DNA of 64,000 nt, taken from Polytrichum commune (Eukaryota; Streptophyta; Polytrichopsida; Polytrichales; Polytrichaceae). A program made the translations under genes and the position numbers. Positions within the stretch are counted from its first letter, which is position 1, and each line of letters starts with the position of its first letter. The stretch lies in contig OX485808.1 of NCBI GenBank assembly GCA_950295325.1, forward strand, positions 22,588,527 to 22,652,526. Direction: 5' to 3'. Shown one piece after another: positions 29,097-47,663 of this stretch. The notes beneath the pieces are model-generated. The model searched no databases. It was not told the origin of the DNA and saw only the letters and a program-made list of their open reading frames with translations.

Positions 29097-32000
29097 ATGA
29101 GATCTGAGGTGTTGGGGTTGGCAGCAGTGCTGATCCCATTTTTGTTGCTGAATGCATCACCGGCTGTGAATGGGGACGCTGGAAGCCAGTTTCTTGACGA
29201 GAAAGAACTTGAAGTGTCGTGGATTGCAGGCAATGCGAGCCTGGCCAATGGGAACTGCGGTACCACTTCTTCCTGATCTAGTCTTAGTGGTCCATGCCCC
29301 TTGCATATATGCTGTTATACATCTTATGGACACATTTTGGGCATATCCTTAATTTGAGTGCTCATGCCAGTGGGATTCTTAAGAGGGTTCTTTTTATACA
29401 CCTCACAGGTTTAAAGTCTGTGAGGTTTTGTTGGAGTTTATGATCAGAGCTTCAATTTGTTGTTTTTTCTGCTCTGCCGACAGGTTTTGAGGTAGAGAGA
29501 GATAGTCTAAGTGCTTTGGTGACGAGGGTTTGGACGCTTCCGGATATGTGGATACGGTTTGATAGGCGAGAAAGGATCGTTTGTAATGAATGAGAGAAAC
29601 GAGAGATATATATATTTTTTTCAAGAAATGTAGAAATGTTGAGGAAAGCTTGGAGCTTTATTGGAGTGTTGATGATGTGAGGAAATAATGAAGGTCCTTT
29701 GATAATCTCTTCCTCTGATCTTAGCTCATGCCCCTGCATAGACACATCTTCTGAACAAATTTGGGCACAGGAGATATTATCCTTTAATCCAAGCACAGTG
29801 GGACCCTTAAAGGAAAATACCTAGAGTACTGGAGTGGATTAAAATACTCACAGCGTTGACGTCTGAGACTTTTGTTGGAGTTTATCAGAGACTTTGGTGA
29901 GAATTTGTTTGTCTGCTCTACCGACAGGTTTTGAGGTCGAGAGATAATCGGTGCTTTGGGGAATAGGTTTCGCTAATATGTGGATTGGGTTTTCAGAAAC
30001 GATGACGATGATATGGGATAAGGGTTCGTTTGTGTAATGCGATAAACAAGAGATTACTTTTTCAAGCAATGCAGTGTTGTCTAAGACTTTGTCAGAGTTT
30101 ATCAAAGATTTTGATTTTTCTTGCTCTACCGACTGGTGTTGAGGTAGAGAAAGAAGTGCTTGTGCAAGGAATTTTGGGCACCTCTGGGTATGTAGGTTTT
30201 CAGAAATTGATGATGATGGGGGATGAGGTGGCATTCTGAAGGGTGCACTGAACAAACAAGGGGAATTTCAGCCAAGAAATGCAGGAATGTTAAGAAAAAA
30301 GTTGGAGTTTTTATGGGATTGGTGAGGTGAGAAAAATATATAATTATTCAATCTATAAGGTTTAAGATTCGTTTAGACATGAAATGAGAAACGGTTGAAT
30401 GGACATCCAGATATTCACAGTATTGTGGAAGTGTATCATACATTTATTTATTAATCCAATTTCCTGCTCTACCGACAAGTTTTGAGGTAGAGAGACAAGT
30501 GCTTGCTGAAGAACTTTGGGCATCTTGACATGTGGATTGGATTCTTAGAGAATGATGATAGGGGATAAGGGGGTAGTTTGTGATCCAATGAATAAGAGAT
30601 TTTCTAATTGACAAGCGTCGTTGAGACAAAAGCTAGGAGCTTCAATTGGAGTGGTGAGGTGAGGAAAAATAAGATTGAAGCTCAAGCATCCTCTAGGATA
30701 GCGTTGAATTTTCACAACACCTACTACCTAGGATGATGTTTTTGTGCTCTGTACCGACATTTTCAGAATCCTGATGTTGTGGACTGTCCTCCACATATTT
30801 TGATGGAAAATGATGAGATAATCACAACCACCCAGCACTGTGAAGAGAGCTGTTGAAATTCGGATCTTAAGCCTCGGAGTTCACCCAAAATGCCAAGGGA
30901 TTTATGTCAGTGCCCTAAAAACTCTGGACTATGTATCTACTTGAAGGGTTTTATTACACAATTGCAAGGAGAAAGGTGACTTGAAAATCAACGCAGACAT
31001 AAAAAATGTAGATGCCGCTGTGGAGTTATTAAGGTGGATAAAACATGCAATTAGTGAAGGATGATTAGCAAATCCAAATCACGACCATACCCATTTGTCT
31101 CATAATTTTCGGAGCTCATATGAATATCTTATTGATTATTTAAGTGAAGATTTGCGTGCTCATTAAGTTGTCATATAGGTCTTCCCTAATCATGTTGATT
31201 ATTGAGCTCATATATAATGTTTAGCATATTTTGAGCACGTAGTCCAATAAATATCCCATAAACACATGTTTTTTTCGTGTCCATTTTTAGGTCCAGACCT
31301 AGCACTCACACTACATAATATATGTGTCTAGATTATTATTGTGTTCAATTTAGGCACGTCTACCTTAGAGATATTTTTTCTAATTTCACTTCATACATTT
31401 TGTCTGGATGCATGGCCAGGGCTTCTCAACAATTGTAACTCTCAATGCACCCGGATGCAGTGCCACCCACTGTTGTCAGATGGGCAACAAACTGTGTGCA
31501 CGACCGTGAATAACAATGAGTTTTGCGGACAAAACGACAACAATACTTGCACCTTCATGAAGCTCAACTACAACAGGAGTTATTTAACGTAAGTGAGTCG
31601 ACATGTTTGATCAACTAAGGTTTTAATTATTATATCTCAACTTAGGTAGCTCATCCTAATGTAGCTCATCCTAATGTAGCTCAATCCAAGGATGTCTAAG
31701 GCTTGCACTTAATATGACCCCCTCCCCCCCTTCATTTGAATGATCATAGGTTCAGTGTTGGTGTTCAAAGGTTTTGAGCTATCTCTAAGTAATGCTCAAT
31801 AAGTAGTGTCGTGTAAGTTTTGTTTTGTTTTGTTAATTTACAGCTTGTGAGTGCATCATTTTGCGAGAAAAAACTCATTAGTGTATGTATGAATCAAAAA
31901 TATATGTGGTCTGTCCCAATACGAGATGGAGTTTATATTTTGACGGGGTACTTGAAGAGGAGAGAGGATTAATCTCCCATTGGTCGCCGGTTTATTTTAA

Positions 32001-35000
32001 TGAGATGTGAACCATGGGGAGGAAGTGGCACTTGTAGGTGAACTTGGACTGACATACCTAGTTCACTTTTAGCAAGTGGGAGATTGATGTAGCTCTCAAG
32101 TAGGATAATCACTTTTAGGTTTTTGAGAAAGGAAAAGTGATTGTGTTCATACATTTAAGAGATCAATCGCCTTCTCCAAGCATACTTTTGACTTCATTAC
32201 ACCTGTTTATGGTATTTAGTCTCACTTTCTATTTTGAGCTACACAATGATGCTTATAACTTTTTACTTAGAATGTAAGATTTGACCAGGTTGAGTCGTTT
32301 CTGTTCTATGATGTCCAGACAATGTATTTAGCCTTTGTGGATAAAAATTGAAATCTATGGCCACAAGTTCTAGCATTACAGCATAATTCCAAATTATAAT
32401 GGACACTAAATACCATAAATGGTTTACTGCAATCCTCACAAGTTTTGCACATGAGAGCCATGTGCCTAAGAATACTTCATTATTGTCATGATGTAGATCC
32501 CTACTTTTCTTTTTTTCTTCCACTCGCTAAACCTCTTTGGCATGGGAGAGAGAGAGACAGGTGTGAGTGCTAATGAAGAACCAAGTTTTGATAAAGAAAG
32601 TGTGGTGCCAATTGATGCTCTTCAAGATGTATTGCCCCTCACCTTGCATATTAGGCTCCAGAGAGATTTTTGGGTATAAGCAGTCAAGATCTTGGTGTTT
32701 CTAAGTCCAACCGGTTACAGGTTGTGATCTTTTGGTTTTTCTTTATTAATTTGAGGTATATTCCCATAGATTCTTCTAAAATGATTGGTAATTCACCTGA
32801 AGCCTGGAACTTCAGCCAGTTATTTCTCAAACTCAGCCTATTCATCTGTTACTAGCAGCTGGTTCTCCCCACTCATTGTTGTATATAACCTACAAATTTG
32901 ACCCTATTGCAGGATCGCACCACCTGCCAACGTCGCGAATATCGGCCAAGAAGTGGAACGGGACATCTGCCTCCAGAGAACGCTGGATACGACATTCTCA
33001 AATATTTCATTCCCGCAGAATTATACATATGTCTTTTTTGGCAGCACAAGTGGAGCTTGGAGAGCGTTCCCGGGACGAGTGAGCCTTTCTGCCATCGACT
33101 TCTCTTAACTTTTCTCAGCTTTCTCGGTCTCATGTCTTTCCATAATTATCATGTGTGTTCAACACCATTCACATTGGTTCATAATTTGTCTTTAATTTTA
33201 ATTTATTTTTTTATCATTTGTTTTCGCTTAACTGCATTCACATTAAGACTTTGCATGTAACAAATACAATACGTACTTGTTTTGGGGTTGAGTCAAATAC
33301 CTACATGTGGTCCAATGTGAGTGGGATTGATAAACTCCCTGATATCAAAATAGAAATTTCAGACGTAGGGAGGAGTGATAAAAAAATTATCATTTGTTTG
33401 TTAGTTGCTCTCAAGCCTCCTCTCCACTTCTGTAGCACCGTATGTGCCTTAAATTTCTATTCCACATTAGAGAGTTTTGAAAACATATAGGTCCACAACA
33501 ATTATCCCATGCAACAATAAAGTTATCCTACGTCATTGAAAATCTACAGATCTACCATGACGGTAGATTTACATTGTTCTTCCACTGACGCATGGTGATT
33601 GGCTAGGTCACATATATATGCGGGGCAGTGATCTTCAATCCCATTTACATTGGTCCAGTGTCCGGGGAGATTTTTGGGCATAATCGGTCAAGATCCTGGT
33701 GTTTCTAAGTCCAACCAGTTACATGTTGTGATCTTCCTCTAAAATGATGGGTGCTTTTCCTGAAGTCTTGAACTACAACTGGTTCATGAGTAACTAGTGG
33801 TTGGGTCTCCCCATCCATTGCATTGGTCCACCTGTGGGGTTTTGGTGCTCAACCCTATTCACATTGAGTCTTTGCATGGTAGAAATACAATGAATACTTG
33901 TTGTTATCTTGTTTATTGCTCAAGCTGTGGACGAGAAATATTACCAACAACAGTGAATGAGTTAGAATGCATATGCTCTATAGTTTGTTGTAACATTTAA
34001 AGCATATTCTAAGAAGAAACTTCAATGCTTTGTAGGTCTGGATTGTCATTCTTAATTCTGACCAGTACAGAATCCTCAATTGCAGGAAGCTTCTACTTCG
34101 AGCTGCGATTCGTATGAAACGCGTCAAAGACCCTGGTAACAGCCACCCACAGAGAGTAATGCATGTCAAATTATGCAAAATGATTTTTCTCATATTGATG
34201 TCACTGGGAGAACGAAATGATCTTAATTTGAAGAGAGTCACTACTAGCATACGAGTCCTATGCAATCATCCCACGTCGATGAAAGGACCAATGCAACTCT
34301 ACCACTGTGCTAGATTTGCAAATTTTCTAGTTACGTAGGACAAGTTTCCAGTGATGTAGGTCAATTGCCTAGGACTCAAATGCTTGTAGTAAGTAAAATT
34401 CATACTTTAGCTAGGTTTAGGTTTTAAGTTTTAGGGTTTGGGGTTTTACGCAATGGAGAACTGACTGCTAATTATAGATGAACCGGTTGAAGTTCAAGAC
34501 TTCAGGAAAAGTACCGATCCTTCCAGAGGAAGCAATGGAATATACCTCAAGTTAATAAAGAGAAACCGTAAGATCACACCATGTAACCCGTTGGACTTCG
34601 AAACACTCGGATCTTGACCGATTAGGCCCAAAAATCTCCCTGGACACTGGTTCTACAAGTAACCACTTACCTACAGCTAATGTATATAGGGTTGAGTAAC
34701 ATACTTGCTAACTTAATTATGTTATCGCCAATGAATGCTGTAATAATCCACTCTTACAACTTTCCACGTGCAGGTATCTGGATGGAATTTCGGTTTACAA
34801 GCAGGTCAAGATCATAATTGATACGGGAAACTCCATGGGCTTGGGAGTTCAAGGCGAATATGGGCGAGCTGTGGGTACAACCTTTTTGAATGTGGCCCAG
34901 ATCCTTACCCTCGAATTACTGAAGACTGTGTCGCCTGGTGACTATGTGGACATCACCACCTACAACTCCACTGGATCTACTTCACTGGGTGCAGCGGTAA

Positions 35001-38000
35001 GCTTATTAATTGCCTGTCTCGGTTCAAACTACCCTAAATTAGTCATACCCTAATTGGACACCTATAATTGAGTGGTACGTTATGTGGTTTGGTGCAGCTT
35101 CAAGAACGGGTACCAAAGAGACGACATGTGCATAAAAGAGATTAGACTATGTGCTCAAAATATGATAACCGTTTTAGGATCAGTAGTCAGCATAATTGAG
35201 GGGACCTATCTGACAAGTAATGAGCACGAGAATCTTCACGAGTGATGAAGAAGATATTCATATGAGCTCTGAAAATTGTGAGGAAAGTGGCTGTGGCCTT
35301 GAGATGGATTTGCTAACCATCTTGTACTAGTCGCATGTTTCATATCCTAGGAGAAGTGGACTAGTTGAAAAATGTAACCATTTAATACCCAAATACCTTA
35401 AGTTGAGTAAGCTTCAGTAGCCTTCAAAGCAAATTTAATATGTTCTTTCTTCGTATTAAATATGTTCAAAATTATGTATGGGACGTCTGCCTAGTGATGT
35501 GGCCACTCTTCTATGTATGCTTTCCATATGCTTACAAAACAAATGAGCACTTCAAAGGCTCAGCGTTCTTGTTAAGTGAAGTTCTTTTTTCTCCCGAAGT
35601 CTTGCATAAAAATTCTGGATCCAAGTGCGTACTCACCTGTTGGGTCACGTGCACTATGATTCACAGGTGAACATTAAGCCATACAATTCCACAAACCCAG
35701 AGGTCCATCCGGAGCTGAGTACGATGATAGGCGAAGTGAACCAGTTGACAGCATCTGCAGCACCGGTGGCATCAAATCTGACTGCTGCGATCCAGTCGGC
35801 GGTGGCCAATTTCCTAAACACGACCACACATTCCTATTTGAATGTAAGCAAAATCCTCTTAATTTCCGAGTTTGGAATGATGAAATTAAGCGAAGCAGCT
35901 GGATGCAGGGTCCGGGGAGATTTTTGGGCATAATCGGTCAAAATCCTGGTGTTTCCAAGTCCATCTGGTTACATGTTTGTGATCTTTTGGTTTTTGTGTT
36001 TCCTATTTTGAGGTGTATTCCATATGTTCCTCTAGAATGATGGGTAAGTTTCTTGAACTCTTGAACTTCAACCAGTTATTTTTTATGAAACTCAACTGGT
36101 TCACCTGTAACTAGCGGTCACTTCTCCCTGTTCATTGGCTGGATGTCCAACATCTGCAATAAGTGGCCAGATAGCTACCACATCTTGTAATGTAGGTAAG
36201 GTAGAGATGCGATGCCTAATTGGGCTACTTATCTTAATCAAGCACCTATATTTGAGTGGTTGTGTAGTTTGGTGTGGCTTCAAAAATGGATATATATATA
36301 TATATATATATATGTTTTTGATTGTGTGCTCAAAATATGACAACCATTCTAGATTCAATAAGCAACATTATTGGGGGTGGGGGGTTATATGAGCATTTAA
36401 TGAGCACGAGAATCTTCACTTTGCTGATGAATAAGATATTCACACGAACTTTGGAAATTATGAGGAAGTGACTACGGCATCGATCTAGATTTGCTAACCA
36501 TCTTGTACTAATCGTGTGTTTCATACCTTAGGAGAAGTGGGCTAGTGAGAAAAAGTAACAAGTTAAGACCCATACACCTTAATGTTACAATAAATCCGGG
36601 TTAGAAAAACACATAATGAATGCCCTTGAGATGCAAATAGAAATAGAAATATGAAACATATGATTTCAAATGTTGATCCCCTACGTCCTTCAAGGGTTGA
36701 CCTTGATCAACATCTTGTGATGGGGACATGAATTGATCGATGGAGGAGATCCTCTTCAAGCTTGACTCGAATGAAGTGAAATTGATTTCAAAGTCCAGGT
36801 AGCTGAAAGGCTTACATAACTAGAAGTACATCAAGATGGTGTCGAAAAGGTTGATTCCCCATAGTCATGGAATGCGGTGGCCTCAGTTGGATGAAGTCTA
36901 ATAATATCAATTTGATGGTTTGATTAGATGAAAGAGTTGAGACTACCCAGTACTACATTTTGAAATAGGCAAGGGAACATATCTCTACTGGAGTTGCTGT
37001 AGCGGGACACTCCAGCACAAAGAGTGCTTCATTTTCAGCTACACTGTCAGAGCAGAAGTGACGTAATCCTTTTGTGATCCCTAGAGTGCCTCTAAAATGT
37101 GTACATTGGATCCCATTTTGCAGGTGATAATAGTCTTCACGGATGGGAATTTCTCTCCCCTGAACAATGCAACGTTTCCCACCTCCAAACTCCTTGCGTC
37201 GCAAGTGAAGGTGATCCTTTACAAACTGCCTCGGTCTTCCGACAACGATCCTTTCCTGCTCAGCACGAGCCTTCAACAAATTCTGTGCGGGGTCCAGGGA
37301 ACTTTTGAGTTGCTGAATGCACCGGCCACCAAAAACCCATTATACTCGATCCGGAGCTACTACTCCTTCTTGGCGCACACACACATGGCGGCTGTCGCCA
37401 ATAAAGCGACATGGAGCAATGTCTATCAAAGCTATACGGAGATGGTGGAAGCTGTAACTGTCACTTATCCAGGTTTGCAAATTCAGCACCGCTTAAAACC
37501 CCATCAATGAACAGGGAGAACTGCTACACAAAATATGATATTTAGTGTTTGATTAGATTTAGTGTTTTACCACCCTACTCTGCTCAACACTAATTTTCAA
37601 TTCTTTGATAATTAGTGTTAGACATAAATGCGTCGCCGCCGCTTTCCTTGTTGCCACCTCTTTCCTACTAAACACTAAATTCGTGCATGTAACTTTCACA
37701 TATTACTATAGATGATATTTAGTGTTTGAGTTTACATTTAATGTTACTTACTTTCATAGGGTTAGTGATATTTAGTGTAGTGTTCGTATTTAGTGTATCT
37801 AACACTAAATATCATATTTTGTGTAGTAGTTACAGATGAACCGGTTGAGTTTAAGAAAGACCTGGTTGAAGTTTGAGACTTGAGGAAATTTACTGATTGT
37901 TTCGAGGAATTAAGGTAATATACCTCAAATTAATGAAGAGAAACTGAAAGATGGCAGCATGTGATCCGTTGGACTTGGAAACACTAGGATCTCGACCGAT

Positions 38001-41000
38001 TATGCCGAAAATTCTCCCCGGGCACTGATCCCCATCATTTACAGGTGTCAGAAGTGCACAAGCTTGTCCTATTAGTGTATATGGAAAGTTAATGTGGAGG
38101 TAGTTAATGTGGCCCCAAGACTCCGGGCCTTCCCCTAAGTCTTCTTGGAGACTTCCAACCAACATTTTATATAAAAACAAGATAGTCACCTTACATCCGA
38201 AGCAGCATAATATGAAATAGTCGTCCACCTCAGTTTCCTAGACAAACAATTTAATGTGGTTCTCACTAATTTTGAATCCAGAGATTTGGCGTGGGTTGAG
38301 AGTTAACACAACCCACAATAATTCCACATGAAGAATTAATGTGGGTAAGGTAGATGTGTCTAATGCAGTTACTTACCTTAATTGGACACCTATGTTTGAG
38401 TGGTATGTGGTTAGATGCGGGTCCAAGAACGGATACACAAAAAAAACATGTGTTCAAATGAGATTGGATTGTGTGCTCAAAATATGAGAACAACTCTAGG
38501 CTCAATAATCAACTTAACTAAGGGGACCTCTATGCCCATTTAATGAGAACGAGAATCTTCACTTCGATACTGATTATGATATTTATACATGCTCTGAAAA
38601 TTATGAGGAAAGTAGCTATGCCCTCAATTTAGAGCTGCTGATTATCTTGGACTAATCGTGTGTTTATAGTGTAGGAGACATGGGCTGGTTGGGAAAAGTG
38701 ACCATCTCAAGACTCATCTAATGAACAACTTTGACCCACACTAATAGGAACAAATCAGTATACCAATCTTTCTTAACCTGCAGTAGGTACCTAAAAGCTT
38801 TTTTTTTCTTCTTTTCTTTTTTCTACTTCTTTCTTAAAACCCTGAGAATATTGGAATACATATGCATACTTCACAGCCCAGTCTCCAGTCAAACACGAAT
38901 ATGTCGCCCCATATTTTTATTATGAAGGTCAGGGATATTCTATTATTTCTTACCGAGTTTCTTAACTGAGCTCCTTATTGTTCTTGTGTGGTAACAGCAT
39001 TCGGAAGCGATGGCCTATTAGTTGGAGTTGCGGGTACTGATGTGTACCTGGGCCAGTTGAAAGGTGACCTATATGCACAGGTTTCGGCAGCTTTGAGCAC
39101 GAGGACAAGGGGCACTCTGAATGCACCTGCAAATCTCAATCTCTCTTGCAATTATCAGGTGATTATCTCTCCTACTGAATTCGCATGTTCATATTTAGAT
39201 ATGGTGAGTATCTCTCCTACTGAATTCGCATGTTCATATTTAGATATGGTGATTATCTCTCCTACTGAATTCGCATGTTCATATTTAGATATGTATCGTT
39301 TCCTGCCTGAATTGGATTTACACCTCGCGCTATGGGAGATCATAGTTCCTTATAACCACTGGTTCTCTTTCACCAGTCACCAGACGGTTTTATGAACTAC
39401 TACAATAGTAGATTTTAGATTTGTATTCGTAGGTTTTCAAACCCATCTAGTGGAAGAGAATTACACCATTTGTGTTAATTAGTGTCACATGTGTAGTAGT
39501 GCTGCTTGCCTTATTTTGAGGCGTATGCTAGGTCACATCAAAGATCATCAACTTCACCAAATTTAATGTCAGCTCATGATCCTTGGCGTTCAAATGCGCT
39601 TACTAATATCTTCGCATAAGTATGCTCGCTAGTTAGTGTTATGAGGTGGATGCCAATGTTACACAATGGTCTACAAGTTGATAAAAAGTGAGCATAAATG
39701 ACACTTGGCATTAGTATGCTTGAGAATATAACCCTCTTGCATACTTAAATGTTCGCACATGATACTTGCCATTAGTAAGCCCAATAGTGTCTTCCCCTTG
39801 CAAACCAAAATGCAATACTATCACCTCAAGTATCCCAATGTACTATGCTACTTCAAAAAAGTTACTTATTTTGATGAGTAATATCATGTTGATAATTAGT
39901 GGACGTGACACTTTGCCTAGTTTAGAACGTTTGCCAATACTATGCATGACACTAAATGCCATAAATGGTGTAGTGGTAAGCATCCACGAGTCCTACAGTG
40001 TCCATAACATACATAGACTTTTTTGACTCCTATCTCTACAACTGCTCTTTTCCCCTTACCCGAGATCCTAGAGCTTGGAAGGTATGTTGTCACCCATCTT
40101 CATTAAACACCTTTATTTGACTGGTGTAAAGCACGGATTGTCTCTAGGTTAAAAGAAAGCATGTTACAATGACATTGGACTCTGTGCTCAAAGTATATCA
40201 ACCTTCTCAGGTGGTCCAATAATTTGGACAATTGCGAGGGTCCATTTGATCACTTCGAGAGATAGATAATCTTCACTTTGACGACTTCTAACTTTTGCAT
40301 CCACCTCCGCTGCTTTCGAAACCCGAAAATGACACTCTATACATAAAGCGGCGATTCGTTGCAATCGCTAATCAAATGACACAATCCCCAATCCGTTCCA
40401 AGGGTCAAAATCATACATGGAGTTGGACATGATCGGGTGAGATCCTAGTGTTTCCAAGACCAACCGGATACAAGTTGACATCTTTCGGTTTCCCTTTATC
40501 AAATTGAAGAACATCCTGTCAATTCCTCTGAATGAACTGGTAACTTTTCCCGAAGTCTTGAATATGAACCGATCATCTCTCAGACTTAACCCGGTTCAAC
40601 TGTAACTAGTGTCCGGTTTCTCCCCGTTCATCGAGTTGGCAAGTGCCCACAAACTATCAGGGTTCCATAACTGCAAGCTTACCTTCCTTACATGAAACCT
40701 CTCGGGTGTCGGACTTGTTTTGCAATTTTTTTGCAGAACCAACCGGCGGTGCAGGTGTGTGTGACAAACTCCACTCTCAACGGAGTTTGCATGCAAAACT
40801 TGGACACCTCCAACAGTTTGCAAGCCCGGGTGTGTTGCGGCGGCTGTTTAGCACCCACGAGTGGCAAGAAAACACCGTACTGGGTTTGGATAATAGTAGC
40901 TGTTGCGGCTTTAGCGGTGTTGGGAATCATAGGAGCTGTTGTTTATTGTGTGTGTGGTCCATCGAGACCCCAACCTCACGTTCCCGATACTTTTCCCGGG

Positions 41001-41087
41001 GGTAACGGCGACGGCACGAACACGATGAATGCAGGAGGCCAGTTTGATCCACCTTACAGTCCCCCCAAGTACAAGGGACAAGATTAG
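29097..41087 (+). CDS. Type I membrane protein with Cache-like and VWA domains (alpha2delta/CACHD-like)
   Basis: I assembled nine exons by GT-AG sites and unbroken frame: 29097-29259, 31420-31588, 32913-33078, 34086-34135, 34774-34996, 35667-35843, 37124-37472, 38998-39158 and 40737-41087, 602 residues in all. Residues 1 to about 25 are a hydrophobic signal peptide (LAAVLIPFLLL). A Cys-rich stretch (about 54-105) follows. Next is a segment ending FFGSTSGAWRAFPGR (152-166) and QRPWY (180-184), the RPWY hallmark of Cache domains in calcium-channel alpha2delta proteins. The VWA domain starts at KIIIDTGNSMG (Asp199) and includes VIIVFTDGN (317-325). A second Cys cluster (494-523), one transmembrane helix (about 536-558) and a Pro-rich cytoplasmic tail ending KYKGQD complete it. 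In the metal site the first Ser of DxSxS is Gly. It probably senses or binds extracellular ligands; no ligand can be named. It has no channel gene as neighbour. Introns of 0.6-2.2 kb are packed with MITEs. Confidence 0.88.
29440..30860. repeat. Degenerate tandem array in intron 1 of the VWA/Cache gene
   Basis: A core close to tgctctaccgacaggttttg, followed by aggtagagag, occurs at 29469, 29913, 30120 and 30464, with a decayed copy at about 30744. Spacing is 444, 207, 344 and 284 bp. The sequence between copies is also related: 'gtatgtaggttttcagaaa', 'gatgatggggg' and 'gttggagttttat..gtgaggtgag' blocks recur. The core is the best conserved part. On the minus strand three copies stay open and read LSTSKPVGRA or close to it. 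Confidence 0.7.
31040..31385 (-). mobile_element. Family F repeat in intron 1 (reverse)
   Basis: It reads 'gatgattagcaaatcc', 'gcgtgctcattaagttg' and 'catattttgagcacg' in the inverted family order. It ends just before the exon 2 acceptor (31418-31419). Confidence 0.65.
32205..32430. mobile_element. Short family-D-like MITE in intron 2
   Basis: The ends 'tttatggtatttagtctca' and, inverted, 'acactaaataccataaatgg' enclose about 225 bp of non-coding DNA. The interior differs from the full family D copies. Confidence 0.5.
32652..32878 (+). mobile_element. hAT-like MITE, family E, copy E4, in intron 2
   Basis: It has the standard interior (gagatttttgggtata, ctaagtccaaccggttac, ggttctccccactcattg). 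The flanks ttgcatat (32644-32651) and ttgtatat (32879-32886) match at seven of eight. It ends only 34 bp before exon 3, so it sits against the splice acceptor region. Confidence 0.8.
33656..33820 (+). mobile_element. hAT-like MITE, family E, copy E5, in intron 3 (internally deleted)
   Basis: The termini CAGTGTCCGGGGAGATTTTT and GTCTCCCCATCCATTG are intact. The 8-bp target duplication cattggtc is perfect (33648-33655 and 33821-33828). About 65 bp of the usual interior is missing. This copy defines the element's ends. Confidence 0.9.
34451..34649 (-). mobile_element. hAT-like MITE, family E, copy E6, in intron 4
   Basis: Inverted copy (CAATGGAGAACTGACTGC to CTCCCTGGACACTG). The flanks gttttacg (34443-34450) and gttctaca (34650-34657) agree at six of eight. 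Confidence 0.75.
35025..35425 (+). mobile_element. Family F repeat in intron 5
   Basis: Landmarks in order: 'ttggacacctataattgagtgg', 'gtgctcaaaatatgataacc', 'taatgagcacgagaatcttcac' and 'ttcatatcctaggagaagtgg' type sequence. It begins about 30 bp after the exon 5 donor and fills most of the 670-bp intron. Confidence 0.7.
35906..36137 (+). mobile_element. hAT-like MITE, family E, copy E7, in intron 6
   Basis: Full-length 232-bp copy from CAGGGTCCGGGGAG to CTTCTCCCTGTTCATTG. The 8-bp target duplication gctggatg is perfect (35898-35905 and 36138-36145). It lies 62 bp after the exon 6 donor. Confidence 0.92.
36190..36600 (+). mobile_element. Family F repeat in intron 6, with an AT microsatellite
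   Basis: The family F block follows directly after E7. It contains (TA)n at about 36290-36312 and a G-tract at about 36374-36384. Confidence 0.7.
36601..37123. other. Rest of intron 6; nothing recognised
   Basis: Intron DNA without repeat match up to the exon 7 acceptor (ttttgcag, 37116-37123). Confidence 0.5.
37505..38027 (-). mobile_element. hAT-like MITE, family E, copy E8, in intron 7, interrupted by MITE A3
   Basis: The left terminus CAATGAACAGGGAGAACTG is separated from the rest (ttacagatgaaccggttgag) by a complete family A element. The right terminus is CTCCCCGGGCACTG. The flanks aaccccat (37497-37504) and atccccat (38028-38035) agree at seven of eight. It starts 33 bp after the exon 7 donor. 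Confidence 0.85.
37522..37834 (-). mobile_element. MITE family A, copy A3, nested in E8
   Basis: The two ends are identical inverted repeats over 24 bp or more (CTACACAAAATATGATATTT and onward). The interior is family A in reverse (ggtggtaa, ctcaacactaattttcaa, gttacttactttc). Nesting dates it as younger than E8. Confidence 0.9.
38335..38740 (+). mobile_element. Family F repeat in intron 7
   Basis: Standard family F order from 'accttaattggacacc' to the 'gaacaactttgaccc' region. A T/C-rich tract follows at about 38800-38835. Confidence 0.7.
39159..39293 (+). repeat. Three tandem 45-bp units beginning at the exon 8 splice donor
   Basis: Units at 39159-39203, 39204-39248 and 39249-39293 are identical except for one base (gtgatt, gtgagt, gtgatt at their starts). 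The first unit begins exactly at the exon/intron junction CAG|GTGATT, and each later unit again offers GT after ATG. 45 is a multiple of three and all units stay open (each reads VIISPTEFACSYLDM or with S for I). Use of the second or third donor would therefore lengthen the protein by 15 or 30 residues without a frameshift. Confidence 0.95.
39466..39976 (-). mobile_element. MITE family D, copy D4, in intron 8
   Basis: The ends 'acaccatttgtgttaattag' and 'gacactaaatgccataaatgg' are inverted relatives. The interior runs in reverse relative to D2 (cattagtatgcttgag, cccaatgtactatgctac). Confidence 0.7.
40105..40290 (+). mobile_element. Family F fragment in intron 8
   Basis: It shows the 'acacctttatttgactgg', 'ttggactctgtgctcaaagtat' and 'gataatcttcactttgac' landmarks only. 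Truncated. Confidence 0.5.
40428..40632 (+). mobile_element. hAT-like MITE, family E, copy E9, in intron 8 (left tip lost)
   Basis: The interior matches the family, and the right terminus is TTTCTCCCCGTTCATC. The flanks gagttgga (40420-40427) and gagttggc (40633-40640) agree at seven of eight. It ends about 100 bp before exon 9. Confidence 0.75.
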
Positions 41088-43780: not shown

Positions 43781-44734
43781 CCATATTATAACAAAGGGAT
43801 GTCCGATTTTTGCTAATGCTTCATTGTCGATTCGCTACTACAACACCACAAGTTTCATTGTGTAAATGTAATAAGTAAAAGTTGGATAACATGGAAAAGG
43901 AACCAAATAAATAAATTTATCATTATGACTGTGACAATAAGTAGCCAAAATCCTCCAGTTGACACCCAAAATGATTCATTTATGCAATTTCTTGCAATGA
44001 GTTGTCTTGGCCGAGTCACAGCGGATGGTTGCAATGGACAAGTTTTCTTCTTCAGGAATGACACCTTAACACTTGCTTGCTTAAGCTTACTTACCTTAAT
44101 TCCTTGGATTGTGTTGAAAAGCGGCTCTCACACGCGGCAGTAAGTTAGAGTTACAACCATTCTTCAATCTCCTTTGGCCTGTCTTTGTGAGCAAGTTATA
44201 GTAATTTCCGAGTCCCTTGGAACCTCATCGCAAAATAAAGTTATTGTTCATACGATGGTAGCAATAGCTATGGCGGCCACAAAGTCATTGTTCGTTCAGC
44301 CCACTCTCCAAGTTTCTCGCCGCACATTACCCTCTTCGACGCTCTTTTGCAACCGAGGTACTTGAATACCTCACAGTTTTCATGTCACTCCAATTTGGAC
44401 TCTCACATCATCATGTGATGCTCGAATGGCTTCGGCAGCAAAGTGCCCCTTAGCTCGCCCTTGAAGAATCATCTCACACTTCGTAACCTTCAAGATTGAA
44501 AGGTTGTTGGGATTCTTTGTAGTGTACGTTCAAGATTCGAGATTCAAGATTCAAGACCTTATCCTTTGAAGTTTTCAATCCTTTCGAATTTCACCCTTTT
44601 GAATTTTCAATCCTGTGAAATTTTCTCCCCAGCTCCCACGCAGCCACCAATGCATATGTGCGGGAACTTGAACTAAGTTATGCATAAAATCTGTGTGTGT
44701 ATGTGCAATGTACGAATGCAATTTGTTAGGCTGG
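43781..44734. other. No gene seen
   Basis: Unique-looking sequence with chance frames up to about 70 codons. A small 'gattcaagattcaagac' tandem lies near 44530-44555. Confidence 0.4.
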
Positions 44735-45110
44735 TGAATGCAATCGTTGATGAATTTTCTTGGGGTTTTGGCGCCAGAGGGTGGATGGAAGTGTTGATGA
44801 TTTCTTGGAGTTTGGGGACCAGAAGGTGAATGCATGTGTTGAATTCTATGTGTTTTGCTTAGATTGGCGCCAGAGAGTGAATGCAAGTTTTGATAAATTC
44901 TATGGGTTTTCTTGGATTGGCGCCAGAGTGTGAATGCAATTGTTGATTTCTTGGGATTCTGGTGCCAGAGAGTCAATGCAAGTGTTGAATCGCATGAAGT
45001 TTTCTTAGTCTGGCGCCAGAGAGTGTGTAAATGCATGTGTTGATTTGTATAGAGGGTGAATGCAAGTGTTGATAAACAAATTCTTGGGGTTTTCTCAGAG
45101 TTGCGGCAGA
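44735..45110 (+). repeat. Tandem repeat array immediately upstream of the DUF427 gene
   Basis: Eight copies of a unit of roughly 45-55 bp (gtgaatgcaagtgttgat ... ttcttggggttt ... tggcgccagaga) start at about 44735, 44781, 44826, 44877, 44931, 44973, 45029 and 45057. The last copy is open in the frame of the DUF427 exon. A C/T-rich tail with CAG at about 45097 could act as a splice acceptor. Confidence 0.85.
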
Positions 45111-45190: not shown

Positions 45191-46711
45191 ATGAGACAGG
45201 AGCGGGAGAAGGCAGGACCAGGCCAGGAATCTGTGTGGGACTACCCGCGCCCCCCGCGCTTGGAGCCTGTAGCGGAGCGTATTCGCGTGGATTTTAACTC
45301 CAAAACTCTGGCTGACACCACCCGCGCCTACCGTGTTTTGGAAACCAGCCACCCTCCAGGTACTTAATTAGCTTCCATTCACCTCCTTCCACCAACTCAC
45401 TCTAGCTATGTCATCAATACCGAAACCCGAAAGCCAAAAAATTATTTAAACTGCTTTCACTTGGTTGCATGAATTCCGTTCGTATCCTTCCATAAACTCT
45501 CTTTGGCTGTGCACTTAAAAACCCAAATTTCCATCTTCTCCTTGCCCTTGGTGGCATCGATTCCAGTCACATGCTGAAATGAACTCACTCTGGCTATGTA
45601 ATTGAATCCAAAACCCAAAACCCAAAATACAAGTCCATTCACATACTTCCACAAACTCACTCTGGCTGTGCAATCAAACCCACAATTGAATCTAAACTGC
45701 TTGCCTTTGGTGAAATCAATTATACTCACATCCCTAAACGAGCTCGCTCTGGATATGCAATCAAATTCAAAACCTAATACCCAAAACCTTATATAAATTG
45801 CTTGCGCTTGGTGGCATAAATTCCATTCTCATCCTTCAACGAGCTTAATCTGGCTGTGTGCAAACAAACAAACTCACAATTGCATCTATGACTACTTGCA
45901 TCAATTCCGTTCACATTATTCCACGAACTCACTCTAGCTGTGCCATCAAACCCGAAATCTCATCTAAACCGCTTGCATCAATTCCACTTACATCCTTCCA
46001 TGAACTCACTCTGGCCCAAAATTGCATTCAAATTGCCTTGTATCAATTCCATTCGTATCCTTCAATTACAACCTGCGGCCATGCCATAATGGATAAATTC
46101 TGCTAATGAAAAATCACATAGATAAAGTAAGTGTCCAGGACCCAGCTTCTAGATGACTTATATCCTATGTAATACCAAACTGTGCTTCGCCCTTGAAACT
46201 CGTGTTCTATTCACTTTACTCACTAGAAAAAGGAACAAGGAAAAAGAAAGGCAATTTGTGGATAACCAATCGTTCTTCATATCTCTGAGATATCTCACAA
46301 ACTCATTCTGGCTGTCCAGTCAAACCCAAATCTCAAAGCTGCATCTAACCTGGGAGCAATTTTGGTTTGGTGGCATCATCATCAGTGTACTACATACCCC
46401 AAGAGGACATAAACATGGAGTACGTGAGGAAGGCATCCGGGAGCTCGTTCTGCGAATGGAAGGGCAATGCGACCTACTGGACAGTGAGCGTGGACGGGCG
46501 CACGGCGGAGAAGGTGGGGTGGAGCTACGAGGACCCCACCGCCCAGTTCCGGCCCATCAAATCCTTCATTGCATTCTACGCCGGCCCCATGGATGCTTGC
46601 TTCGTGGGCGATGAGCGCGCGCAGCCCCAGCCTGGTGGCTTTTATGGTGGTTGGGTCACCTCCAAGGTTGTGGGTCCTTTCAAAGGCGCCCCTGGCTCTT
46701 GGGGATGGTAG
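45191..46711 (+). CDS. DUF427-family protein
   Basis: Two exons, 45191-45359 and 46386-46711 (phase 1 junction), encode 164 residues. The protein shows the DUF427 (Pfam NTP_transf_9) pattern: ESVWDYPRPPRLEP near residues 13-26, LADTTRAYRVLETSHPP (about 40-56) directly followed across the splice by VYYIPQEDI (57-65), then CEWKGNATYW (about 77-86) and the C-terminal VGPFKGAPGSWGW. The fold is known from bacteria, fungi and plants; no reaction is established to my knowledge. No signal peptide is visible, so it is probably a soluble intracellular protein. I chose the ATG at 45191 because it is the first in the open frame; upstream in-frame codons extend to 45056 without ATG. Exons are GC-rich. 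The gene is wrapped in tandem repeats upstream, in its intron and downstream. Confidence 0.88.
45370..46340. repeat. Tandem repeat array filling the DUF427 intron
   Basis: About nine copies of a 73-104 bp unit with the core aactcactctggctgtgcaa occur at about 45393, 45496, 45581, 45654, 45739, 45839, 45920, 46000 and 46297. Satellite words are cttggtggcatcaattcc, cattcacatccttcca and aaacccaaaa. The array begins within about 15 bp of the donor. The acceptor region itself (ttggtggcatcatcatcag) looks like part of a unit. A unique 200-bp gap lies at about 46085-46285. Confidence 0.88.
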
Positions 46712-47581: not shown

Positions 47582-47663
47582 GTCGCTTTGGCCGAGTGGT
47601 TAAGGCGTGTGCCTGCTAAGTACATGGGGTTTCCCCGCAAGAGTTCGAATCTCTTAGGCGACG
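47582..47663 (+). tRNA. tRNA-Ser(GCU)
   Basis: The 82-nt cloverleaf has an acceptor stem GTCGCTT pairing with AGGCGAC (one G-U), a D-arm GGCCGAGTGGTTAAGGC, anticodon GCT at 47615-47617, a long class II variable arm (tggggtttcccc) and a T-loop GAGTTCGAATC with discriminator G. Internal A and B box promoters for RNA polymerase III are intact. No intron is present. CCA is not encoded, as expected in a nuclear gene. It decodes AGC and AGU codons. Confidence 0.97.

What the first reader, a model, noticed from the sequence alone, without database searches (positions are those of the whole stretch)
39159..39293. Splice donor of exon 8 tandemly triplicated, creating three in-frame alternative donors
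Three 45-bp units, differing at one base, start exactly at the exon 8 / intron 8 junction of the VWA/Cache gene. Each unit begins with GT in splice-donor context, and the middle one has the stronger GTGAGT. Because 45 is divisible by three and all units are open, the gene could make proteins with 0, 15 or 30 extra residues between the VWA domain and the Cys-rich juxtamembrane part. Near identity means the duplication is recent. A repeat whose edge coincides with an exon edge is rare and may be a route to new protein sequence.
Basis: partly seen in the sequence, partly recalled or inferred. Interest (0 to 1): 0.8.

Follow-up and report, generated by a model that had tools for sequence, protein, structure and literature searches.

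The report
Triplicated intron start with three donors
The first 45 bases of one intron in a plant-like gene are repeated three times, so the gene has three in-frame places where splicing could begin; the repeat is real and resembles a case already described in a human gene.

Summary
Window 39158-39293 is a 3 x 45-bp array plus one base; only the middle unit differs, at one base. It begins within one base of the end of exon 8 of a nine-exon, 602-aa gene model resembling the VWA/Cache part of calcium-channel alpha2-delta. All six paralogues read have a phase-0 intron at this place and no such array, so the array is intron sequence and the first donor (D1) is ancestral. On a donor model from 36 family introns D2 (4.88) beats D1 (3.43); D3 (1.35) is weak. 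The one substitution is the only one of 135 possible that adds 3 bits or more. Extra residues would follow the Cache-like part, not the VWA. Frame keeping is weak evidence (P(open) about 0.4), and similar arrays are common here (17 in 190 kb). No transcript data were available, so use of D2 is inferred. A minisatellite giving several splice donors is known from human 6-16/IFI6: a new member of a known kind.

The parts
29097..41087 (+). alpha2-delta-like VWA/Cache membrane-protein gene, coding span, 9 exons (29097-29259, 31420-31588, 32913-33078, 34086-34135, 34774-34996, 35667-35843, 37124-37472, 38998-39158, 40737-41087); start codon chosen by eye
   Evidence: Gene model, 8 of 8 introns GT-AG, 602 aa; PDB sequence match to CACNA2D1 E 3.8e-7 over residues 135-439; Pfam VWA, VWA_N and a Cache-type (PDC) model below their cut-offs; paralogues in the same genome
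38998..39158 (+). exon 8, end of the Cache-like part, last codons C-N-Y-Q
39159..39203 (+). repeat unit 1, donor D1 CAG|GTGATT
   Evidence: donor score 3.43
39204..39248 (+). repeat unit 2, donor D2 ATG|GTGAGT, one base different
   Evidence: donor score 4.88
39249..39293 (+). repeat unit 3, donor D3 ATG|GTGATT
   Evidence: donor score 1.35
39159..40736 (+). intron 8 when D1 is used (phase 0); if retained, in-frame stop at 39393-39395
40737..41087 (+). exon 9: Cys-rich juxtamembrane segment, transmembrane helix (read by eye), short tail, stop

Best explanation
A 45-bp segment starting at the 5' splice site of intron 8 was tandemly multiplied to three copies within the intron, leaving the ancestral donor D1 in place and adding two in-frame copies, D2 and D3. 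One base difference in the middle unit makes D2 fit the donor consensus better than D1. Most likely D1 and D2 compete, giving a mixture of the ancestral protein and a form with 15 extra residues (one extra cysteine) between the Cache-like part and the Cys-rich juxtamembrane segment; D3 is used little or not at all. Shown: the array, the conserved intron position, the open frame, the relative donor scores. Inferred: that D2 is used, and how much. No function need be supposed.
For: Array and units. In 6 of 6 paralogues read, a phase-0 GT-AG intron starts at this place, and their loci hold 0 minisatellite-like arrays, so the units are intron-derived. Donor scores D2 4.88, D1 3.43, D3 1.35; 29, 20 and 9 of 36 family donors score no higher; same order in all variants of the model tried. 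U1 pairing: over 11 nt -11.1, -8.2, -5.2; over 9 nt -8.9, -8.2, -5.2 for D2, D1, D3. The substitution is the only one of 135 single changes that adds 3 bits or more on this model. [quoted passage not shown]
Against: No transcript evidence. Four intronic GTs outside the array score above D1 and two of them above D2 (5.95 at 40436, 5.45 at 39975), and these are presumably not used, so score alone does not predict use. D2 and D3 lie in AT-rich sequence on both sides, without the GC-richer exon to AT-richer intron step that (recalled) helps plant donor choice; D1 has a weak step (GC 0.40 before, 0.33 after).
Confidence: 0.5

Rival explanations
1. Ordinary intronic minisatellite that happens to begin at the donor; only D1 is used and the array has no effect on the protein.
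For: Minisatellite-like arrays are frequent: 17 distinct in 190 kb. D1 is the ancestral site by position in six paralogues and scores about the family median (20 of 36 at or below). An open frame is expected about 0.4 of the time for shuffles of the unit and for the rest of the intron.
Against: D2 outscores D1 in every variant of the model tried; 0 of 17 sampled arrays have a donor as good as D3 at an edge.
Confidence: 0.27
2. D2 has replaced D1 as the main donor: the intron start has slid 45 bases and the protein now normally carries 15 extra residues.
For: D2 has the better score and U1 pairing; the only difference among units is at donor position +5, the best of 135 possible single changes on this model. 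Intron sliding is described in Drosophila (passages of PMC2891723).
Against: D1 is intact and upstream; one unpaired cysteine would be added beside a Cys-rich segment; 0 of 6 paralogues have such an insert at the junction.
Confidence: 0.18
3. The extra units are an assembly error.
For: Only one assembly and no reads were available; the copies are nearly identical.
Against: The whole array is 136 bases, short enough for one ordinary read, and one unit carries its own base difference.
Confidence: 0.03

Closest known systems
Human interferon-induced gene 6-16 (IFI6/G1P3) minisatellite (Turri, Cuin and Porter 1995, seen only as citations; use described in a passage of PMC4526556)
   Same: A tandem repeat at an exon/intron edge provides several splice donors; downstream repeat units serve as donors, giving three mRNA species
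   Different: There the units are short and many (12 nt, about 26 copies: recalled); here three units of 45 nt. There use in RNA is reported; here it is not shown. Different gene and kingdom
Intron change by local tandem duplication (potato RdRp gene, PMC4974935, passages; Drosophila near intron pairs and intron sliding, PMC2891723, passages)
   Same: Local tandem duplication copies splice signals and can shift or create introns
   Different: Here no new intron is seen: the copied segment is intronic and only the donor side is multiplied
Calcium channel alpha2-delta subunit (VWA plus Cache ectodomain)
   Same: Sequence similarity over residues 135-439, the VWA_N, VWA and start of the Cache-like part
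   Different: Much shorter protein (602 aa against about 1,050-1,115 in the matched chains); at least two of six paralogous loci run on into protein kinase sequence

Membership tests
Minisatellite providing multiple splice donors (IFI6 type) | Tandem array whose edge lies at an exon/intron junction | tested here: met
   exact to within one base
Minisatellite providing multiple splice donors (IFI6 type) | Each unit carries a donor-like site in a common frame | tested here: met
   Donors after 39158, 39203 and 39248, all frame 0; D3 weak
Minisatellite providing multiple splice donors (IFI6 type) | More than one unit is used as donor in RNA | not testable with these tools
Minisatellite providing multiple splice donors (IFI6 type) | Copy number varies among individuals | not testable with these tools
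   One assembly only
Intron gain by tandem duplication (AGGT model) | A duplicated exonic segment yields a new intron | tested here: not met
   The unit is intronic and the intron old, by comparison with six paralogues
alpha2-delta-like VWA/Cache proteins | Sequence similarity to alpha2-delta over VWA and Cache | tested here: met
   E 3.8e-7, residues 135-439
alpha2-delta-like VWA/Cache proteins | Pfam VWA or Cache above curated cut-off | tested here: not met
   VWA_2 20.1 bits against 27, VWA 17.9 against 23.8, VWA_N 19 against 34.7, MCP-like_PDC_1 20.1 against 27

The most novel reading that the evidence does not exclude
The array is a splice-donor minisatellite under selection: the +5 change in unit 2 was favoured because it lets the plant make a second ectodomain form, 15 residues and one cysteine longer beside the membrane, caught at the moment when intron sequence becomes protein.
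Probability: 0.07. Interest if true: 0.6.

Novelty: new member of a known kind. Interest (0 to 1): 0.35.

Why it matters
If D2 is used, this is a clean natural case of an intron start copied in frame that offers new residues to a receptor-like ectodomain while the old donor is kept; copy number and donor strength could be set directly against isoform ratio. If only D1 is used, it is a neutral minisatellite and a caution against reading repeats at exon edges as functional.

Tried and rejected
Considered and rejected: that the array is exonic sequence (all six paralogues read have an intron there). That it belongs to a dispersed repeat (1 match in the genome; no inverted repeats in 38950-39450). 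That divisibility by three and openness show selection (P(open) 0.39 and 0.40). A DNA alignment of the junction (window and five paralogues, L013 not included) was too diverged to inform. Retrocopies that could show the spliced form: none seen among the 25 matches, in which only the best candidates are scored. A GT after unit 3 and a GT inside the unit score below all 36 family donors. Pfam on the exon 8 to 9 segment with two units inserted gave one match, below cut-off (SCIMP). Related plant genomes could not be compared: the collections on hand are of prokaryotes, viruses and plasmids, and this genome has no relatives held.

Limits: the donor model rests on 36 donors of one gene family, picked by me at intron positions conserved in the family: 34 of the 69 introns listed, plus two read by eye (L014 and L016). 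D1 and 34 other introns of the 69 were left out before scoring, as non-conserved or doubtful. This may favour consensus-like sites, and homologous donors are not independent. In one search the window gene was aligned to its own D1 model, so only the paralogues are a test there. The 19 sample stretches were placed by me at round coordinates on contigs C1 to C7.

Full report
What is there. The window lies in a genome of 407.8 Mb in 64 contigs. The seven contigs whose lengths were shown add up to about 406 Mb, so seven chromosomes look likely. At 39158-39293 there is an array of three 45-bp units plus one base, with a single difference in the middle unit. The left edge is ambiguous by one base because the last exon base is also part of the repeat.

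The gene. A model of nine exons, 8 of 8 introns GT-AG, gives 602 residues without a stop; its start codon was chosen by eye. The protein matches calcium-channel alpha2-delta-1 over residues 135-439 (best E 3.8e-7; the 13 distinct sequences listed at E up to 1 are all alpha2-delta-1). Pfam VWA, VWA_N and a Cache-type model match below their cut-offs. The signal peptide and the transmembrane helix in exon 9 are read by eye. Exon 8 encodes the end of the Cache-like part, so an insertion would lie between that part and the Cys-rich juxtamembrane segment.

Where the exon ends. A protein search of the genome at E up to 10 gave 25 matches: nine in this gene, 15 in six other places, and one weak one elsewhere (E 1.4) that was not followed. 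The six places were fetched. Read at the junction, all six have an in-frame GT soon after the conserved Cys: CN, CN, CN, CK, CQMQQ and CQMHQ precede the GT, against CNYQ in the window. For 6 of 6 a phase-0 AG downstream restores the homologous juxtamembrane exon. A spliced alignment with no donor preference chose the same donor in 4 of 6; in L014 it preferred a GT five bases earlier with a different AG, which is also open, in L016 it missed the junction, and in L015 it took another acceptor. The six loci hold no minisatellite-like array. The simplest reading is that D1 is the old donor and that the first 45 bases of the intron were multiplied.

Donor strength. From 36 donors of the family (D1 left out; choice described under Tried and rejected) a weight matrix gives D2 4.88, D1 3.43 and D3 1.35; the number of family donors scoring no higher, each scored with itself left out, is 29, 20 and 9 of 36. 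The order D2 > D1 > D3 held in 7 of 7 models leaving one gene out and in the model of 34 distinct 9-mers. Predicted pairing with the U1 5' end (sequence recalled) gives the same order: -11.1, -8.2, -5.2 over 11 nt and -8.9, -8.2, -5.2 over 9 nt. Against over-reading: among 105 GTs in exon 8 and intron 8, four outside the array score above D1 and two of these above D2, and they are presumably unused. The single difference in unit 2, at +5, is the only one of 135 possible single changes that raises a D3-type donor by 3 bits or more; 9 of 135 raise it at all. This is a post hoc count on my model, and which base is older is unknown.

Frame and chance. The unit is open in the gene's frame; the other two forward frames hold stops. 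Shuffled units are open 0.39 of the time and 45-base stretches in the rest of the intron 0.40; with one in three for divisibility, about one in eight. In 19 stretches of 10 kb there are 26 rows, or 17 distinct arrays after merging overlaps by hand, of period 20-150, at least two copies and 85% match; the window has two. With at least 2.8 copies and 95% match there is one in the sample and this one in the window. None of the 17 has a donor as good as D3 within two bases of an edge on either strand; the best is 0.65. Donors as good as D3 occur about once per 268 positions, as good as D1 once per 1052 and as good as D2 once per 3330. So for one array (10 positions tried) a D1-like donor at an edge is about a 1% event, but at this density some tens of thousands of arrays are expected in the genome (extrapolated), and many such edges must then arise by chance. 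The edge match is not in itself evidence of function.

What it would do. D1 gives the ancestral protein; D2 adds VIISPTEFACSYLDM, 15 residues with one cysteine; D3 adds 30 with two. Retention of the intron ends at a stop at 39393-39395, before the membrane exon. I think use of both D1 and D2 most likely (0.5), then D1 only (0.27), then mainly D2 (0.18).

Comparison with what is known. [quoted passage not shown] the paper is not held. [quoted passage not shown] That is the same kind of thing. Tandem duplication across an intron/exon boundary in potato RdRp (PMC4974935, passages) and intron sliding in Drosophila (PMC2891723, passages) are neighbours. Nine searches of the paper library were answered. 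The titles and beginnings of abstracts listed showed no plant case of a multiplied donor array, but the library lacks most subscription papers and the search is by words only.

Verdict.

Noticed in passing
L011:5522-6001 and L016:3757-5348 (paralogues of the window gene): Two of the six paralogous loci have protein kinase sequence downstream of the VWA/Cache-like ectodomain (L011 PK_Tyr_Ser-Thr E 5.5e-17; L016 Pkinase E 3.8e-16 in one open frame and PK_Tyr_Ser-Thr E 5.6e-12 in another), suggesting receptor-like kinases with an alpha2-delta-like ectodomain; that they are one gene is not shown, and the other four loci were not examined for kinases. The window gene model ends without a kinase. 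Two library searches found no paper holding all their terms.
   Followed up: partly
window 2375, 27505, 32667, 33671, 34610, 35921, 37988: A dispersed repeat sharing TTTTTGGGCATAATCGGTCAAGATC: 7 matches with up to 3 mismatches on both strands, none in shuffles; five of the seven lie in introns of this gene model. A similar stretch starts about 30 bases into the matching intron of paralogue L013.
   Followed up: partly
L014, in the VWA/Cache-like exon: In-frame TAG in the paralogue on C4 (FKPF*TKTF), so it may be a pseudogene or carry a sequence error or further intron.
   Followed up: no
window 46349-46711: Open frame of 120 aa that looks like a DUF427-type protein (recalled from its letters, not tested against Pfam).
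   Followed up: no
window 44733-44947: Degenerate arrays with units of about 45 and 53 bases whose consensus contains GGTGAATGC and AGTGAATGC; no exon edge was looked for there.
   Followed up: no
window 47582-47663: tRNA-Ser (GCT) predicted.
   Followed up: no
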